DNA of 57,545 nt from a virus. Positions 13,828 to 57,286 of this stretch are shown here, one piece after another (within the stretch, counting starts at the first letter, position 1; each line of letters opens with the position of its first letter). The stretch lies in IMG/VR virus record IMGVR_UViG_3300034523_000291, positions 1 to 57,545 of that record; one strand, given 5' to 3'. The notes under the pieces are model-generated. The model was given only the letters and a program-made list of their open reading frames with translations, was not told where the DNA came from and made no database searches. Both the position numbers and the translations under genes were made by a program.

Positions 13828-14205
13828 ATGTTCAGATTTTTTCTAGCCACTATTTTTTCATTTGTTTTTCTCGGCGTAATTTCTGGTTGCTCTTCCACTG
13901 CCGAACAAGAAAAAACACTGAGCGCCGGGCTCGTTGCGCATTTGAATAAATTCAAGACGTACCCGATCGCCTCGCAACTGGCCGGGGTTGAAGGGACAAC
14001 CCAACTGCGCTTTACGATAGATGGCGACGGAAATGTCGTTTCTTATGAGCTGGTACAAAGTTCAGGCAATGTGGACTTGGACGCGGCCACTCTAGAATTA
14101 ATCCGTCGCGCCCAACCACTGCCGAAACCACCAGCCGATTTAATGAAAGACGGCCCAATTACGATCATTGCCCCTTTTATCTACTCCCTAGACGGGAATA
14201 TCTGA
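13828..14205 (+). CDS. TonB C-terminal-like lipoprotein
   Basis: 125 residues. A signal peptide with lipobox (GVISGC, Cys21) is followed by a domain like the TonB/TolA C-terminus: LNKFKTYPIASQLAGVEGTT, then VSYELVQSSGNVDLDAATLE and QPLPKPPADL. Real TonB has an N-terminal membrane anchor and Pro-rich spacer; here the domain follows a lipoprotein signal directly. It is on the opposite strand inside the leftward early operon, so it is a moron. It might alter TonB-dependent receptor use, including phage entry; that is inference. Confidence 0.78.
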   Translation: MFRFFLATIFSFVFLGVISGCSSTAEQEKTLSAGLVAHLNKFKTYPIASQLAGVEGTTQLRFTIDGDGNVVSYELVQSSGNVDLDAATLELIRRAQPLPKPPADLMKDGPITIIAPFIYSLDGNI

Positions 14206-15308: not shown

Positions 15309-15337
15309 AATATAAGCCCGCTTATTTTATTCGTCAA
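15309..15337 (-). promoter_or_regulatory. PL-like leftward early promoter
   Basis: On the minus strand TTGACG (15332-15337), a 17-nt spacer and TATATT (15309-15314): close to a sigma70 consensus. One CI-type operator covers the -10 side and a second adjoins the -35, so repressor would shut it fully. It should drive the leftward early genes from 14584 on. Confidence 0.8.
15312..15325. promoter_or_regulatory. Distal operator OL1-like
   Basis: ATAAGC-CC-GCTTAT, a perfect 6-bp dyad overlapping the -10 of the leftward promoter. The arms are identical to the operator at 20232-20245 next to cro. Confidence 0.8.
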
Positions 15338-15350
15338 TAAGCAGGCTTAT
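15337..15350. promoter_or_regulatory. Distal operator OL2-like
   Basis: ATAAGC-AG-GCTTAT, identical over all 14 bases to the operator at 20232-20245. It abuts the -35 of the leftward promoter and is 25 bp from the neighbouring site. Confidence 0.82.
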
Positions 15351-15368
15351 ATATTTTCCTGCGGGCGA

Positions 15369-15397
15369 TAAAAAGCCCGCTCAGTGGCGGGCTCTTT
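15369..15397. terminator. Bidirectional terminator
   Basis: AGCCCGC-tcagtg-GCGGGCT with a T tract on both sides. It ends the DUF1654 transcript (stop at 15397) just before the leftward promoter. Confidence 0.8.
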
Positions 15398-15648
15398 TAT
15401 GAGTCGCAGTACTCGTGCCAGCCGATTCTGACGGTGCCTCCATCCAAATGCTCAACCCTAATACCGGCCGTGTCACCGATCTCCTGGATTACCTGGTGCC
15501 AGGCTTCAGGGCTTTCATCGTCGCGCCTGGAGACCTCAACCAACTGAATCCGCTGTACCCGCGGAGAGGCGATCAACCGTTGCAGGCGATGGCCCACAAG
15601 TTCGTAGGAGTTTCTCGATTTTGGTGTGGGGTAGGGTGCCTGGATCAT
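15397..15648 (-). CDS. DUF1654 protein, SOS-controlled
   Basis: 83 residues from the ATG at 15648, which has AAGGAGCG upstream. SYELVGHRLQRLIASPRVQR and DDESPEAWHQVIQEIGDTAG match the DUF1654 family, which is mainly found in Pseudomonas and its phages and has no assigned function. A LexA box lies 20 bp upstream within the promoter, so it should be DNA-damage-inducible. It is followed at once by a terminator. Confidence 0.82.
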   Translation of the reverse strand: MIQAPYPTPKSRNSYELVGHRLQRLIASPRVQRIQLVEVSRRDDESPEAWHQVIQEIGDTAGIRVEHLDGGTVRIGWHEYCDS

Positions 15649-15667
15649 GCTTCGCTCCTTGCGAATG

Positions 15668-15683
15668 CTGTATTTGTGTACAG
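15668..15683. promoter_or_regulatory. LexA (SOS) box
   Basis: CTGTATTTGTGTACAG fits CTGT-N8-ACAG. It overlaps a promoter reading leftward: TTGCCA (15703-15708), 17 nt, TACTGT (15680-15685). LexA here would block the DUF1654 gene until SOS induction. Confidence 0.8.
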
Positions 15684-15774
15684 TATTGGTGGTGACATAT
15701 CTTGGCAAGAGGGCGGCAGCAAGTTTCATGCACAAATGCATATTTCGCACGGCGGAGTCTTTTCGGCAGGCATG

Positions 15775-15797
15775 AAAAAGCCCGCGCGTAGCGGGCT
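15775..15797 (-). terminator. Terminator of immunity-protein gene
   Basis: On the minus strand AGCCCGC-loop-GCGGGCT followed by TTTTT, 25 bp after the stop at 15822. Confidence 0.75.
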
Positions 15798-15821
15798 GTG
15801 CTTGAATGCATGGAGCCAAAG

Positions 15822-16647
15822 CTACTTGCCGGAAGAGGCCCACCGAGCCAGCGTCCAATAGGTTGACTGACCAATCCTTGGCTCCTTTGCGTACTCTGTA
15901 GGGCGCTTCAAGCCGACCTGCATAAGATCGTCTCGCACCTGCAGGACAGTCCAGCGAATATCCCTCGCCAAGTCCTTTTGGTGGAAACAATTTTCCCCCG
16001 AGGTTCTGTCAGCCCAGGCGGTGAATTCTGACTGGTTATAGTGAAAGAGGGATTGATTGAAATCGGTAGCGGAAACGCAGCCAAAAGCTGAGCCGTCTAA
16101 AATAACCAGGTCGTCGGCTGATGCACGAAAGGTACCGGGCGCGGCAATGTGTGAGGCTACATTCGCCACCGGGAGCAAACGGTACGCGATCGCACCGATA
16201 ATGATTGCCACGAGACCAGAGCACAGCGCTACGAACAGCGCATTATTGCCAGCTGCCGAAGCTGCTCCCGAAATTACTTCTACAGACTCCGTGACAGGAC
16301 TCTGACTTTCTTGGTTGATGGGCCCTGCGTTATCGTCAGGCAAAACATCGGCGCCGCAATGTTTGCACTTTATTGCTGCGCGCTTGATGGTCTCGGCGCA
16401 CATTGGGCAAATCCTGTCAGAAGAGGCGCCGATCTCAGAGGGCAGCTTTTGTTCTGTATTCGCCGAAACCGACCATACGAGCGCTGCCACCCATCCAAGT
16501 GCTGTCCAGCCTAGCAACAGGTTCATCAAAAAAAATCGAGTTGCCGTTGCGATGCTTGCGCTTTGCAGCCACGAAGGTGGGCGTGAAATATATGACGAAG
16601 GCAGCCATTAGAAGCACAAAGCCGGCCAGTGGACTTCCACTATCCAT
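15822..16647 (-). pseudogene. Superinfection-immunity zinc-ribbon protein, split
   Basis: The 5' frame (start 16647) encodes FVIYFTPTFVAAKRKHRNGN-SIF, and the next frame continues MNLLLGWTALGWVAALVWSV; together these form the T4 Imm-like superinfection-immunity membrane domain. The frames meet at an A8 run (16528-16535); seven A would make one continuous protein. After the membrane domain come a zinc ribbon (CPMCAETIKRAAIKCKHCGA), a third membrane helix (LFVALCSGLVAIIIGAIAY) and a C-terminal domain of unknown function. The full protein would be about 274 residues. The downstream part alone (235 aa from a TTG) may still be made. Confidence 0.8.
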
Positions 16648-16744
16648 ACCAAAAAACTAGTCCATTGAATTGAGTTAGCACTTTATCATTCGTGGCGTAC
16701 AGCCACCATTGGCGGCGTACGGATTCAGGTCGGGTAGGGGAGAT

Positions 16745-16775
16745 ACAAGAAGCCCGGCGCTGGACCGGGCTTTTG
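16745..16775 (-). terminator. Terminator of small secreted gene
   Basis: AGCCCGG/CCGGGCT hairpin right after the stop at 16777; T-rich on the minus-strand side. Confidence 0.7.
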
Positions 16776-16776
16776 A

Positions 16777-16908
16777 TCAGGAGCAGGTCCCGCCCTTATG
16801 GTGCGATCCTGTTCCACCTGTTGGGTGAGTGCCTTTTGGACACGCCGAGGCAGAGAAGGAAGCTATCGAAAGCAGGGCTACCAAGCCAATTACAGCGAAT
16901 TTTTTCAT
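16777..16908 (-). CDS. 43-aa secreted His/Gly-rich peptide
   Basis: GGAGG is 4 nt before the ATG at 16908. A signal peptide (MKKFAVIGLVALLSIASFSA, cleavage after SA) is followed by a mature part CPKGTHPTGGTGSHHKGGTC plus a final Ser. The mature peptide has two Cys near its ends, so it could form one disulfide loop, and a His pair. Small proteins of this type occur in Pseudomonas. A terminator follows directly. Function unknown. Confidence 0.7.
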   Translation of the reverse strand: MKKFAVIGLVALLSIASFSASACPKGTHPTGGTGSHHKGGTCS

Positions 16909-16988
16909 AGAGCCTCCATGCACTGCGGAATGCAGTATCAGGGCATCGGCGTGTCGAGATATTGCTTGAGTGAAGAAATTCGGTGAAT

Positions 16989-17315
16989 TCAGAAGGACGA
17001 TGCAATCGCCTGAGCCAGTTGCATGTCGCTCATCAAAGGCGAGCTGTAGGTCGCCCTGTAGTACCTGGAGGCTTGCTCAAACTGAGCGCCGCGAATTTCG
17101 CCGTCTGATCCTATGAATGCAAGCGCATCAGTCTTTGCTGATTTGAGTGGTTTTTGCGAATCGTCCGACGTATAGCTCGGTAACGTCGTCAAAGCGGTTG
17201 GCAAGATTGATGTGTAGGTCATCACTTTATCGAACGGGGTGGCCTTTTCATTCGCCGTTACGTGGTTGCCGATCAGCACCATCGCAGCGATTGCCAGAGT
17301 CTTCCATGTGTCCAT
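16989..17315 (-). CDS. DUF2388 secreted protein
   Basis: 108 residues. An N-terminal signal peptide (LAIAAMVLIGNHVTA) precedes a domain with KTDALAFIGSDGEIRGAQFE and DMQLAQAIASSF, the signature of DUF2388, a Pseudomonas periplasmic family without known role. Lies between cI and the distal operator, so it is probably expressed in the lysogen from its own promoter. Confidence 0.75.
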   Translation of the reverse strand: MDTWKTLAIAAMVLIGNHVTANEKATPFDKVMTYTSILPTALTTLPSYTSDDSQKPLKSAKTDALAFIGSDGEIRGAQFEQASRYYRATYSSPLMSDMQLAQAIASSF

Positions 17316-17379
17316 TCTTCGATACTTCCATTGCGATCAGAGGGCGCCACCATAGCAAAGCAAGGGGCTTGCCAGAAAC

Positions 17380-17404
17380 AAGAGGCCCGGCGCTGGGCCG
17401 GGCT
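17380..17404 (-). terminator. Terminator after XRE-ImmA gene
   Basis: GCCCGG/CCGGGC hairpin downstream of the stop at 17424; the minus-strand T tract is imperfect. Confidence 0.6.
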
Positions 17405-17423
17405 TAACCTATTCCGGGCTTTA

Positions 17424-18497
17424 TCAGACAACCCTGAGACGAGGAGGCGTTATCGGACGGTTCGGCTCGGGTTGCTCTCCTAGCACCCCTTGGAGAAGAG
17501 AGTCCATCTCATCGAGAGGAAGGTTAAGTTGATCGGCAATCGACTCCTTCGTATAGCGATCCTTCCAAAGCTCTTCAAGCACTTTTCGCCAAAGCACAGA
17601 GAATTCCCTATCCATAGATTGGGGTTCCTTTGTTCTATAGCCAGCTATTGCAATCTGCTTGCAGATCTCTCTGTAATGCCAATCAGATAAAATATTTACA
17701 TCCCTAAGGCTCCGAGCCAAAGCAGGTACAGAAACTCCCCATCTTTTCTTGCTGGCGATAATTTGTGAAATGGATCTTACTGAGGGAAGATTTGCAATCA
17801 AATCTTCCCTGGGTATCAACAGGTTAGACGCAAATGCGTCCGCATCTCGCTCAACATCAGAGCCTTCAGTATAACCATGCGCATGCATTAGCAAATGGCC
17901 CAGCTCATGAGCGGCGTCGAACCGGCTGCGTTCTGACGACTTTATGGTATTCAAAAAAATAAATGGAGTGCCATCTCTCCAAAATGAGAATGCGTCAACG
18001 TCACGACCTTCCGACAAAGTGAAGATCCGAACACCTTTAGATTCGAGAAGCTTGATCAAGTTTGGTATAGGACGGAACCCAAGGCCCCAATGACGCCTAA
18101 TTGATGCTGCAGCTGAAACTGGATCTTCATCTCTTAGATCGAGTAGGTCTTGTGTGGGAAGATTAAATTTACTTGCAACCCAGTCGTTGAATAGATACCC
18201 AAGCGCACCGCTGGCTAATGCCGCGTCTGTTTGTTTGGCAGTCATTGATTTTAGACTACGAAAACTTACCTGCTTGCTATGTAGCTCATCTACATCGTCA
18301 AGATAAAAGAACTCAACTGGATACTTTAAAGCCTTCGCTATTGCGGCTACTGTTTCTGTTGAGGGTTCAATGGTAACCCCTTTTGCTATCCTAGAGAGTG
18401 TGACTTGAGTAACTCCAGACAGCTCTGCGAGTTTTTTTTGCGTAAGCTGCCTGCGCTTTCTAGCGAAGTCGAGCCGTGAAAGATTGAGATTCGCCAT
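17424..18497 (-). CDS. XRE regulator with ImmA/IrrE protease
   Basis: 357 residues. Residues 7-65 are an XRE helix-turn-helix (LTQKKLAELSGVTQVTLSRI). The central part is a COG2856/ImmA-type zinc metallopeptidase with HELGH at 197-201 and the third ligand region VERDADAFASNLLIP (Glu216). The C-terminus (to RLRVV) is helical. In related systems ImmA cleaves a repressor to release mobile-element or stress genes. The gene starts 2 bp after the stop of the partner at 18500, so the two form one operon controlled by the 45-bp dyad upstream of the partner. Confidence 0.88.
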   Translation of the reverse strand: MANLNLSRLDFARKRRQLTQKKLAELSGVTQVTLSRIAKGVTIEPSTETVAAIAKALKYPVEFFYLDDVDELHSKQVSFRSLKSMTAKQTDAALASGALGYLFNDWVASKFNLPTQDLLDLRDEDPVSAAASIRRHWGLGFRPIPNLIKLLESKGVRIFTLSEGRDVDAFSFWRDGTPFIFLNTIKSSERSRFDAAHELGHLLMHAHGYTEGSDVERDADAFASNLLIPREDLIANLPSVRSISQIIASKKRWGVSVPALARSLRDVNILSDWHYREICKQIAIAGYRTKEPQSMDREFSVLWRKVLEELWKDRYTKESIADQLNLPLDEMDSLLQGVLGEQPEPNRPITPPRLRVV

Positions 18498-18499
18498 CT

Positions 18500-19144
18500 T
18501 TATTTTTTCGAAATCAGAATTTCTGGCTCATCGACAATGCCTTCCGCCGCGGGAGCAGTCGCGAATTCCAGCAGGTCGATATCTTTATCAGCAACAAAAA
18601 TTCGGTCAAAGAAACCTACGAAGTGATCTTCTGTGAATGGTTTTGGCCTGGATACCTCAACCTCCAATCGTTTTGCGTTAGCCGATACGCAAACGAACCA
18701 TACCACCGGAAAGCTACCATCCGGACGACTGTCCACAACATCAGCCCTAGGGAAGAGACTTTGCGCATGAGGGGCAGCTACTAAATCACGTGTAGCCTCT
18801 CCTTTAGGTGAAATCGCTTGCGGCTCGATATCCTTGCAAGCGTGATCTACGTTTTGAAAACCCAGCATGATCCCAAGGTCGTCATTAACTACAATCTCGA
18901 TATTTCTGAAGTTGCCAGTTCTCCAACCGCTAGGAAGTGTCTCTAGGCGGAGGTGCCGAATCCCGGCCTGATAAGCTTGAGTACCAGGGAAGTTGACTGG
19001 GTCAACCCCTTCTAGGTATTCGGATCGAGCGCTCGCTGCTGCCATACCAATTTTGATGATCTGGTCAGAGGTGAGACCCAGGGCGTCAAGGCTGCGCTTA
19101 ATATCGTATGGCTGGTCGATAATACCGAGAGCATGATTGGACAT
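18500..19144 (-). CDS. Partner protein of XRE-ImmA
   Basis: 214 residues from the ATG at 19144, with AGGTG upstream; an earlier in-frame start at 19204 would lie in the dyad operator. Contains MSNHALGIIDQPYDIKRSLD, FRNIEIVVNDDLGIMLGFQ and a C-terminal VEVSRPKPFTEDHFVGFFDR. No domain was recognised. The same operon as an ImmA protease suggests it is a substrate, toxin or sensor partner; this is inference. The arrangement resembles a two-gene toxin-antitoxin or defence unit. Confidence 0.75.
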   Translation of the reverse strand: MSNHALGIIDQPYDIKRSLDALGLTSDQIIKIGMAAASARSEYLEGVDPVNFPGTQAYQAGIRHLRLETLPSGWRTGNFRNIEIVVNDDLGIMLGFQNVDHACKDIEPQAISPKGEATRDLVAAPHAQSLFPRADVVDSRPDGSFPVVWFVCVSANAKRLEVEVSRPKPFTEDHFVGFFDRIFVADKDIDLLEFATAPAAEGIVDEPEILISKK

Positions 19145-19155
19145 ATTTTCACCTG

Positions 19156-19200
19156 ATGTTAATTTTTTCTTCCTACATTGTAGGTTAAAAAAATTAACAT
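19156..19200. promoter_or_regulatory. 45-bp dyad operator of XRE-ImmA operon
   Basis: A 13-bp outer inverted repeat (ATGTTAATTTTTT at 19156-19168 and its complement at 19188-19200) and an inner one (CCTACA-T-TGTAGG, 19172-19184) share the same centre at 19178. A leftward promoter candidate (TTGCAT, 16 nt, TACAAT) lies across it. A strong candidate for autoregulation by the XRE domain. Confidence 0.75.
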
Positions 19201-19270
19201 GCAATGGCTGGTCGATGAGCGCGCAGGCCTTTCGGATTTACTTCAGTGATCCTGTCCGACCACAGTCGCC

Positions 19271-19513
19271 TCAAAAACGCGCGCCATAGAAGTGATTCAG
19301 CGCTATCAGTTCAACCACAGCCACGAAAACGCAGAGCACAACGAAGCCAGGGCTGAAGACCCGCTTGCGGCCGGATGAGCTCCAGCTAAGACCAGCTGCG
19401 TCGGAGTAGCCGGGGATCATCATAAGCAACGCCAGGCAAGCAATTACCCCAACCTTGCTCCAGAAGGACCGCTCTCGCCATGAGGTCGAAGGTTTTCCAA
19501 GGGCGGATGGCAT
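19271..19513 (-). CDS. Membrane protein coupled to cI
   Basis: 80 residues with two hydrophobic segments (about 19-36, VGVIACLALLMMIPG, and 53-75, GFVVLCVFVAVVELIAL). Its ATG overlaps the cI stop (TGATG), so it should be translated in the lysogen along with repressor. Position equals rexA in lambda, and a role in excluding other phages is plausible, but no family was recognised. Confidence 0.72.
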   Translation of the reverse strand: MPSALGKPSTSWRERSFWSKVGVIACLALLMMIPGYSDAAGLSWSSSGRKRVFSPGFVVLCVFVAVVELIALNHFYGARF

Positions 19514-20172
19514 CAGTAAAATTTCTGCAGCGCCTGCACAACCACGCCCACGATCCGGCAGTTCTCGTCCACCGCCTCGATCGGGTAGCTGGGGTTCAGC
19601 GGCTTCAGGAACAGTCGACCGCCATCGCTGACCAGCTTCTTGAACGTCGCTTCGTTGCTGTCTGGCAGCTTGGCTACCACCAGCTTGCCTGGGGCGACTT
19701 CGGCCTCAGTGTCCACCAGGATCAGAGTGCCTTCAGTGATGCTCTGACCGGCGGGCGCCGTCATTGAGTCACCTTTCACCTTCAGCCAAAACGCTGTGCC
19801 CTTGGAGTCGTACTCCGAAAACTCATAGCTGTCAGAGAATCCGGCCGGGTAGGGCTCAACAGCCTCCGCCCAGGCGCCGGCGGCAACCCAGCTGATTACG
19901 GGGTAGCGGAATGATTTGGTGGGCTGCGCGGCAATAGAGATATTTGACTCGGCAGCGCTTACACCTGTCATTGGCCCGGTATTTTCGGAGAGCCAAATAG
20001 CGTTCACACCACACACATGGGCGATCTTCGGCAGGTGTGCGCTTTGAAGGTTCTTTCCGGTCTCCAGCTGGGAGATTACCGGCTGCTCAACACCCACTTT
20101 TAAGGCGAGCGCCTTCTGCGTCAGCTTGGCGTGATTGCGTGCGGTTTTGATTCGTTCGGCGAGTGTGCTCAT
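19513..20172 (-). CDS. cI: CI repressor, LexA/S24 type
   Basis: 219 residues from the ATG at 20172. Residues 5-62 form an XRE helix-turn-helix (LTQKALALKVGVEQPVISQL). The C-terminal half is a LexA-like self-cleaving peptidase: cleavage site Ala98-Gly99 (VAAGAW), nucleophile Ser136 in KGDSM and Lys178 in TFKKL. It should hold the prophage silent through the operators at 20185-20245 and 15312-15350 and cleave itself on RecA activation. No Shine-Dalgarno precedes the ATG, which lies only about 9 bp after a TATAAA box, so the message from that promoter would be almost leaderless. Confidence 0.93.
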   Translation of the reverse strand: MSTLAERIKTARNHAKLTQKALALKVGVEQPVISQLETGKNLQSAHLPKIAHVCGVNAIWLSENTGPMTGVSAAESNISIAAQPTKSFRYPVISWVAAGAWAEAVEPYPAGFSDSYEFSEYDSKGTAFWLKVKGDSMTAPAGQSITEGTLILVDTEAEVAPGKLVVAKLPDSNEATFKKLVSDGGRLFLKPLNPSYPIEAVDENCRIVGVVVQALQKFY

Positions 20173-20181
20173 CAGCTGGAA

Positions 20182-20209
20182 TTTATAAGTTCCCTTATCG
20201 GCTTGCAAA
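20182..20209 (-). promoter_or_regulatory. PRM-like promoter for cI
   Basis: On the minus strand TTTGCA (20204-20209), 16 nt, TATAAA (20182-20187). Transcription would begin 1-4 nt before the cI ATG, as at lambda PRM. The -10 overlaps the operator nearest cI. Confidence 0.55.
20185..20198. promoter_or_regulatory. Operator OR3-like
   Basis: ATAAGT-TC-CCTTAT, a variant of the ATAAGC-N2-GCTTAT dyad. It overlaps the -10 of the cI promoter, so filling it would limit cI synthesis. Confidence 0.65.
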
Positions 20210-20231
20210 TAAGTTTCCTTCTACTTAGGAT
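20203..20231 (+). promoter_or_regulatory. PR-like promoter for cro
   Basis: TTGCAA (20203-20208), 17 nt, TAGGAT (20226-20231). The middle operator lies between its -35 and -10 and the strongest operator just after the -10. Confidence 0.6.
20209..20222. promoter_or_regulatory. Operator OR2-like
   Basis: ATAAGT-TT-CCTTCT, an imperfect copy of the dyad, 24 bp from the site near cI and 23 bp from the site near cro. The spacing of about two helical turns is as in lambda OR. Confidence 0.5.
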
Positions 20232-20245
20232 ATAAGCAGGCTTAT
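20232..20245. promoter_or_regulatory. Operator OR1-like
   Basis: ATAAGC-AG-GCTTAT, perfect 6-bp arms, 15 bp before the cro start and at the predicted start of the cro transcript. Identical to the distal site at 15337-15350. Confidence 0.82.
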
Positions 20246-57270: not shown

Positions 57271-57286
57271 CTGTATGGGTATACAG
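57271..57286. promoter_or_regulatory. LexA (SOS) box
   Basis: CTGTATGGGTATACAG, within the longer symmetric TACTGTATGGGTATACAGTA; matches CTGT-N8-ACAG. Controls the gene starting at 57249. Confidence 0.85.

What the first reader, a model, noticed from the sequence alone, without database searches (positions are those of the whole stretch)
15397..19513. Lysogeny cargo block between cI and PL, in the rexAB position
Between the two operator sets sit a cI-coupled membrane protein, an XRE-ImmA pair, two secreted proteins, a superinfection-immunity protein and an SOS gene, all leftward and most with their own terminators. In lambda this slot holds genes expressed in the lysogen. This block is the best candidate here for an uncharacterised anti-phage set.
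Basis: partly seen in the sequence, partly recalled or inferred. Interest (0 to 1): 0.75.

Follow-up and report, generated by a model that had tools for sequence, protein, structure and literature searches.

The report
Phage immunity slot holding RosmerTA defence
In a dormant Pseudomonas virus, the stretch next to the gene that keeps it dormant is a swappable pocket of anti-virus genes; here it holds a known kind of toxin-antitoxin defence, and related viruses carry many other defences in the same place.

Summary
The anatomy is mostly as described, with two corrections. The block lies between CI operators, all genes leftward, in a lambdoid Pseudomonas phage. (1) The "XRE-ImmA pair" is one 357-aa HTH+M78-peptidase protein (RmrA, PADLOC 8e-134) plus a 214-aa partner (RmrT, 2.7e-29): a RosmerTA anti-phage toxin-antitoxin pair with a conserved palindrome before it. 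The best defence candidate is thus a known kind. (2) The superinfection-immunity gene is split by a frameshift at a T8 run; of 14 relatives read, 13 run through in one frame, and L087 (T6) is split too. DUF1654 is a conserved LexA-boxed gene. The rexAB analogy is literal: of 102 distinct cI-to-DUF1654 slots, 39 hold at least one recognised or TA-type defence gene (RosmerTA, XRE-ImmA+DUF4411, PD-Lambda-5, Kiwa, BstA, Dazbog, RexA, candidates). Flanking regions hit 4 PADLOC families, the slot 177. Shared DNA resumes at intrinsic terminators more often than chance, suggesting terminator-jointed cassette exchange. The cI-to-n hotspot, and RosmerTA in lambdoid Pseudomonas prophages, are in print; I found no print of this DUF1654-anchored slot. 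Expression and phage resistance are untested.

The parts
20184..20245 (.). CI operator set on the cI/cro side (three dyads)
   Evidence: pattern scan
19513..20208 (-). CI repressor (HTH + S24 peptidase), left edge of the slot
   Evidence: Pfam HTH_3 and Peptidase_S24
19271..19513 (-). 80-aa membrane protein, start overlapping the cI stop (TGATG)
   Evidence: phrog_29612 1.5e-41 only; found in 59 of 102 slots, TGATG at the cI stop in 39; dN/dS 0.31
19156..19200 (.). palindrome before rmrT, probable RmrA operator
   Evidence: inverted repeat I2; core CCTACAATGTAG and T-run/A-run arms kept in 7 of 7 aligned loci
18500..19144 (-). RmrT, 214-aa toxin of RosmerTA
   Evidence: PADLOC RmrT 2.7e-29 full length; no Pfam, PHROG or NCBIfam match
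17424..18497 (-). RmrA, 357-aa HTH + M78 (ImmA/IrrE) peptidase antitoxin, HELGH motif visible
   Evidence: PADLOC RmrA 8.1e-134 full length; Peptidase_M78 8.5e-22
17385..17403 (-). terminator after RmrA; start of homology to L088
16989..17315 (-). 108-aa secreted DUF2388 protein
   Evidence: PF09498 2.9e-17; cluster in 35 of 102 slots
16777..16923 (-). small secreted protein, 48 aa from GTG or 43 aa from ATG
   Evidence: ORF; no family match above chance
16435..16647 (-). superinfection-immunity gene, first part (other frame)
   Evidence: PF14373 positions 1-21, 0.0025; phrog_1039 3.3e-7
16528..16535 (-). T8 tract at which the reading frame changes
   Evidence: tract lengths in relatives
15822..16529 (-). 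superinfection-immunity gene, second part with zinc ribbon
   Evidence: PF14373 positions 22-42, 8.5e-6
15668..15683 (.). LexA-type box
   Evidence: exact box before DUF1654 in 82 of 102 slots, 0 of 94 mid-slot
15397..15648 (-). DUF1654 protein, 83 aa, right edge of the slot
   Evidence: PF07867 1.1e-18
15309..15351 (.). OL operator pair and PL-like promoter

Best explanation
The block is the lysogenic cargo of an exchangeable immunity-region slot, from cI to the LexA-boxed DUF1654 gene and OL, in lambdoid Pseudomonas phages, the same place as rexAB in lambda. In this phage the slot's defence payload is a RosmerTA pair. Inferred working: RmrA (HTH + M78 protease) binds the palindrome before rmrT, represses the pair and neutralises RmrT; infection by another phage upsets this, RmrT is freed and stops the cell before the invader multiplies. 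The cI-coupled membrane protein is probably made together with CI in the lysogen. DUF1654 is probably switched on by DNA damage. The superinfection-immunity gene is probably off in this copy. Shown by sequence: gene identities, operators, operator footprint, LexA box, frame break, enrichment of the slot in defence families. Inferred: toxicity, neutralisation, anti-phage activity, expression in the lysogen.
For: RmrA and RmrT full-length PADLOC matches; 26 of 27 RmrA relatives have a gene just before rmrA, 22 of these similar to this RmrT at E 0.003 or better; conserved palindrome; RmrT-RmrA again after a cI-like gene in an unnamed Pseudomonadaceae genome. Slot: 39 of 102 distinct slots hold at least one PADLOC-recognised or TA-type gene, 24 of them named systems (with 46, 64, 87, 88, 90); 177 PADLOC families from 67 slot representatives against 4 from 134 flank representatives; RexA plus a multi-TM ORF in the slot of L124. 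Published RosmerTA members protect against phages (PMC10440598, passages).
Against: No expression, toxicity or plating data. 63 of 102 slots have no recognised defence gene. 82 of the 177 families come from one AAA protein. Slots were collected by similarity to this window, so they are a biased sample. The pair is rare: 1 of 398 Pseudomonadaceae genomes has this RmrT, and only 4 of 102 slots do. The flank beyond DUF1654 is as variable as the slot.
Confidence: 0.75

Rival explanations
1. RosmerTA here serves mainly to keep the prophage in the cell (addiction) and has little anti-phage effect.
For: It is a TA-type pair with its own palindromic operator on a mobile element; the P. syringae paper suggests that prophage-borne defences may stabilise the prophage (PMC13182921, section 14).
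Against: A phage-borne RosmerTA protected E. coli against two phages (PMC10440598, passages); neighbours in the same slot of relatives are defence systems without an evident addiction role, such as Kiwa, BstA and RexA.
Confidence: 0.3
2. The immunity gene is phase-variable: slippage at its T tract turns superinfection immunity on and off in a lysogen population.
For: Close copies have tracts of 6, 7 and 8; L087 and the window differ by no other indel in 1,592 aligned bases; the part after the tract is under purifying selection (dN/dS 0.20, 6 homologues).
Against: Only 7 distinct close copies, 2 of them out of frame; a further scan found the same 6 contigs; mutation or read error would look the same. 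A -1 frameshift does not rescue the window copy, because that frame stops at once.
Confidence: 0.2
3. The block is mostly ordinary variable phage filler with little function in the lysogen.
For: The flank beyond DUF1654 is just as variable: 236 clusters in 485 ORFs, against 173 in 410 for the slots of the same loci; 63 of 102 slots have no recognised defence gene.
Against: That flank and the other one together hit only 4 PADLOC families; the genes with enough homologues are under purifying selection.
Confidence: 0.1

Closest known systems
RosmerTA (RmrT/RmrA), e.g. of Gordonia phage Kita (PMC10440598); first description recalled as Millman et al. 2022
   Same: HTH + ImmA-type protease antitoxin next to a toxin; carried by a temperate phage
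   Different: Kita's RmrT is predicted to sit in the membrane and depolarises cells; this RmrT is another type, with no long hydrophobic stretch seen by eye
Lambda rexAB and P. putida prophage P1 RexABpp (PMC12894663)
   Same: Defence genes downstream of cI on the same strand; in P. putida, also two genes after cI
   Different: This window has no RexA match; its payload is a toxin-antitoxin pair. Relative L124 has RexA
BstA of Salmonella prophage BTP1 and the cI-to-n mosaic hotspot (PMC8585504)
   Same: Same site after cI; the paper notes the cI-to-n region as a hotspot of mosaic diversity; BstA-like proteins occur in 2 of 102 slots here, one a partial match
   Different: Other payload here; slot edge is DUF1654 with a LexA box
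P2 and P4 defence hotspots (PMC9122126)
   Same: A fixed phage site with exchangeable anti-phage systems
   Different: Other phage family and other site
RosmerTA in lambdoid P. syringae prophages (PMC13182921)
   Same: RosmerTA most prominent in the lambdoid clade that includes PhiAH14a, a phage that also matches this window (8% covered, 83% identity)
   Different: The passages and the one section read give no position of the pair relative to cI

Membership tests
RosmerTA | Antitoxin RmrA with HTH and ImmA-type (M78) protease domain | tested here: met
   PADLOC RmrA 8.1e-134 over residues 5-357; HTH_3 and Peptidase_M78 above cut-off
RosmerTA | Adjacent toxin of an RmrT family | tested here: met
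   PADLOC RmrT 2.7e-29 over residues 8-215; genes 2 nt apart
RosmerTA | Toxin harms cells and antitoxin relieves it | not testable with these tools
   needs expression assay
RosmerTA | Protects against phages | not testable with these tools
   needs plating assay
RexAB | RexA sensor and RexB membrane protein after cI | tested here: not met
   No RexA match among 9 window proteins in PADLOC; only the position is shared
Superinfection immunity protein PF14373 | One open frame over the whole domain, above the curated cut-off | tested here: not met
   Two frames; halves score 26.0 and 18.1 against 27.9
LexA regulon (DUF1654 gene) | LexA-type box just before the gene | tested here: met
   Exact CTGT-N8-ACAG at 15668-15683 (such a match is not rare in the window by itself, 21 of 100 shuffles have at least 2), but conserved in 82 of 102 relatives against 0 of 94 mid-slot
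PD-(D/E)XK nuclease fold (RmrT) | Fold match and D...(D/E)xK catalytic motif | tested here: inconclusive
   Two models (pLDDT 74 and 82) rank NaeI first by VIA-align (Z 6.6 and 7.7, rmsd 3.6 and 3.8, 132 and 139 aligned), but Z is under 8, unrelated folds mix in, no Foldseek hit reaches 0.001, and the only invariant acidic residue, E163, is in ELS/EVS rather than ExK

The most novel reading that the evidence does not exclude
The cI-to-DUF1654 slot of Pseudomonas lambdoid phages is a cassette-exchange site whose joints are intrinsic terminators: each unit ends in a terminator that also serves as the shared sequence at which another phage's DNA resumes. The many unnamed cassettes, with the cI-coupled membrane protein and the zinc-ribbon membrane family, include new anti-phage systems, and a slippage-prone immunity gene is one switchable member.
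Probability: 0.4. Interest if true: 0.65.

Novelty: new member of a known kind. Interest (0 to 1): 0.45.

Why it matters
It turns one block into a usable address: a fixed, easily recognised site (cI on one side; LexA box, DUF1654 and OL on the other) where Pseudomonas phages of this kind store defence genes. 63 of 102 sampled slots hold no recognised defence gene, so the site is a short list for finding new systems. If terminators are the joints, it also suggests how phages swap such genes without breaking the repressor operon.

Tried and rejected
RmrT as a membrane pore like Kita's toxin: not supported, no long hydrophobic stretch seen by eye. RmrT as a PD-(D/E)XK nuclease: left open; a search of predicted viral structures gave no match at 0.001 (best 4.7e-3, a ParB/sulfiredoxin-like protein). 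RmrT in solved structures by sequence: none. RmrT in the phage collection: none; in plasmids: 8 distant matches of 22-32% identity. A genome-contig scan with the RmrT alignment found no relative. Rescue of the immunity gene by a -1 frameshift: rejected, that frame stops at once. Variability as a special mark of the slot: rejected, the flank beyond DUF1654 is as variable. Ends of shared segments at terminators: not above chance (21 of 306 against 24.3); only resumption points are. Literature on DUF1654: one paper in the library holds the word, not read. RmrT with RmrA as words: one paper, not read. My statement that the DUF1654-anchored slot was not found in print rests on the searches only.

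Limits of the counts. The slots come from the best 80 of 595 cI hits, the best 80 of 101 membrane-protein hits, 73 immunity-gene hits and 4 RmrT hits, so they are biased to this window's relatives; the window itself is one of the 102. Of 165 loci with cI, 145 had DUF1654 downstream, and 102 distinct slot sequences were kept. Most of the other 20 stop at a contig end, but L219, L220 and L229 have more than 8 kb downstream without a DUF1654 match. The PADLOC scan of the slot used 67 of 110 cluster representatives, chosen by eye: likely spurious, secreted or transposon-like ones were dropped, and so were the RmrT and XRE-ImmA clusters. The control used all 134 that met the length rule. In the census the DUF4411 group is counted as TA-type on Pfam DUF4411 and a partial RmrA match of its XRE-ImmA partner (5.9e-17); DUF4411 itself has no PADLOC match. 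Census groups take each cluster by its scanned representative. ORFs were called by a simple script, not a gene finder. Note 2 of the notebook gives the tract as 16530-16537; the right place is 16528-16535.
Full report
The window is an IMG/VR virus record of 57,545 bases. Its layout is lambdoid: leftward cI; rightward small repressor-family gene, CII-like, anti-repressor, O-like, NinB and NinG genes; leftward Gam-like and exonuclease genes beyond PL. The nearest named records are Pseudomonas phages.

The block 15397-19513 is real. CI operator-like dyads stand on both sides, with a PL-like promoter in the left set. Seven cargo genes run leftward: an 80-aa membrane protein overlapping the cI stop, RmrT, RmrA, a DUF2388 secreted protein, a small 43-48-aa protein, a superinfection-immunity gene and DUF1654. 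Terminator-like hairpins follow RmrA, the small protein, the immunity gene and DUF1654.

The pair in the middle is RosmerTA. The 357-aa protein matches PADLOC RmrA at 8.1e-134 and the 214-aa protein before it matches RmrT at 2.7e-29; the latter matches nothing in Pfam, PHROGs or NCBIfam. Of 27 RmrA relatives from genomes and viral contigs, 26 have a gene just before rmrA, and 22 of these are similar to this RmrT at 0.003 or better in a search of the 26. A palindrome before rmrT keeps its core in 7 of 7 aligned loci while its surroundings diverge, as expected of an operator bound by the HTH of RmrA. In one of 398 Pseudomonadaceae genomes a relative of the pair again follows a cI-like gene on the same strand.

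The superinfection-immunity gene is broken by frame in this copy. Its two halves match the two halves of PF14373 in different frames. Of 14 relatives read, 13 run through; L087 is split too, with a tract of six T where the window has eight. Between L087 and the window no other indel occurs in 1,592 aligned bases, which points at the tract itself. Seven distinct close copies are too few to tell switching from mutation or read error, and a scan for further copies found the same six contigs.

What else lives here. I gathered loci by cI, the membrane protein, the immunity gene and RmrT and took the stretch from the cI end to DUF1654: 145 loci, 102 distinct sequences, 155 to 7,641 nt long, median 3,062. 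ORFs of 90 aa or more lie on the cI strand 293 times and opposite 79 times. An exact LexA box lies within 170 nt before DUF1654 in 82 of 102, against 0 of 94 mid-slot stretches; two or more operator-like dyads follow DUF1654 in 46 of 96, against 0 of 94. So cI on one side, and the unit of LexA box, DUF1654 and OL on the other, are the fixed edges.

Between the edges, 67 of 110 cluster representatives hit 177 PADLOC families at 1e-5, 82 of them through one AAA protein, while 134 representatives from stretches of matching length on both flanks hit 4 families (best 8.5e-15). Assigned to slots, 39 of 102 hold at least one such gene (37 of 97 after collapsing near-identical slots): RosmerTA 4, XRE-ImmA with DUF4411 7, PD-Lambda-5 4, Kiwa 4, RexA 2, BstA 2 (one a partial match), DzbA 1, the rest PADLOC candidates and one type-IV-like restriction gene. 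The 11 slots of the XRE-ImmA cluster divide into exactly 4 with RmrT and 7 with DUF4411, which looks like partner swapping at one site. L124 carries RexA (1.5e-71), a 154-aa multi-TM ORF in RexB's place, a zinc-ribbon membrane protein and DUF1654 in that order. The other 63 of 102 slots have no recognised defence gene.

How the cargo is exchanged. The window is 97.9% identical to L002 over 2,648 nt that hold most of cI, the membrane gene and RosmerTA; from about 17404, at the terminator after RmrA, it is 89.6% identical to L088, which has other cargo before that point. In all slots, points where homology resumes lie within 20 nt of a terminator-like hairpin 152 of 668 times, against 22 for random positions (largest of 1,000 trials 34), and 146 of 544 against 48.7 for random intergenic positions (largest of 500 trials 69). 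Points where homology ends show no such bias. Many of these points come from related pairs, so the counts are not independent events.

RmrT's mode of action is unknown. Two AlphaFold models from distant ends of the family (pLDDT 74 and 82) both resemble restriction endonucleases, NaeI first (VIA Z 6.6 and 7.7). But the scores are in the range where chance arrangements occur, Foldseek gives nothing significant, and the usual catalytic motif is not conserved. I treat it as a lead only.

Compared with print. RosmerTA is known, with a phage-borne member shown to protect (PMC10440598, passages). It is the most prominent defence in lambdoid prophages of P. syringae (PMC13182921, section 14), and Acinetobacter prophages carry it as well (PMC12421847, passages). 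The cI-to-n region of lambdoid phages is already called a hotspot of mosaic diversity (PMC8585504, Discussion passage), and a P. putida prophage has a RexAB two genes after its cI (PMC12894663). What I did not find in print is this DUF1654-anchored slot with its range of systems and terminator joints. The finding is a well-placed new member of known kinds, with a modest new generalisation.

Noticed in passing
window 16528-16535: T8 tract in the superinfection-immunity gene; close copies have 6, 7 or 8 in the tract, so the gene may be slippage-prone.
   Followed up: partly
window 16741-16772 and 17374-17405: Two terminators 633 nt apart share 91% identity over 32 nt, possible recombination handles.
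   Followed up: partly
window 13828-14205 (+): Rightward lipoprotein-like ORF with a TonB C-terminal domain (PF03544 2.8e-14) inside the leftward early region.
   Followed up: no
window 57271-57286: A second exact LexA-type box near the end of the record; within chance for the whole window.
   Followed up: no
L126:5731-6339 and relatives: A membrane protein family next to DUF1654 in 44 of 102 slots, unmatched by PADLOC and Pfam at 1e-5; the member in L124 carries the same kind of zinc ribbon as the immunity gene.
   Followed up: no
L029:10692-12085: Two-gene unit (350 aa and 115 aa), the larger without PADLOC match; its cluster is in 6 slots. Candidate for an unnamed defence pair.
   Followed up: no
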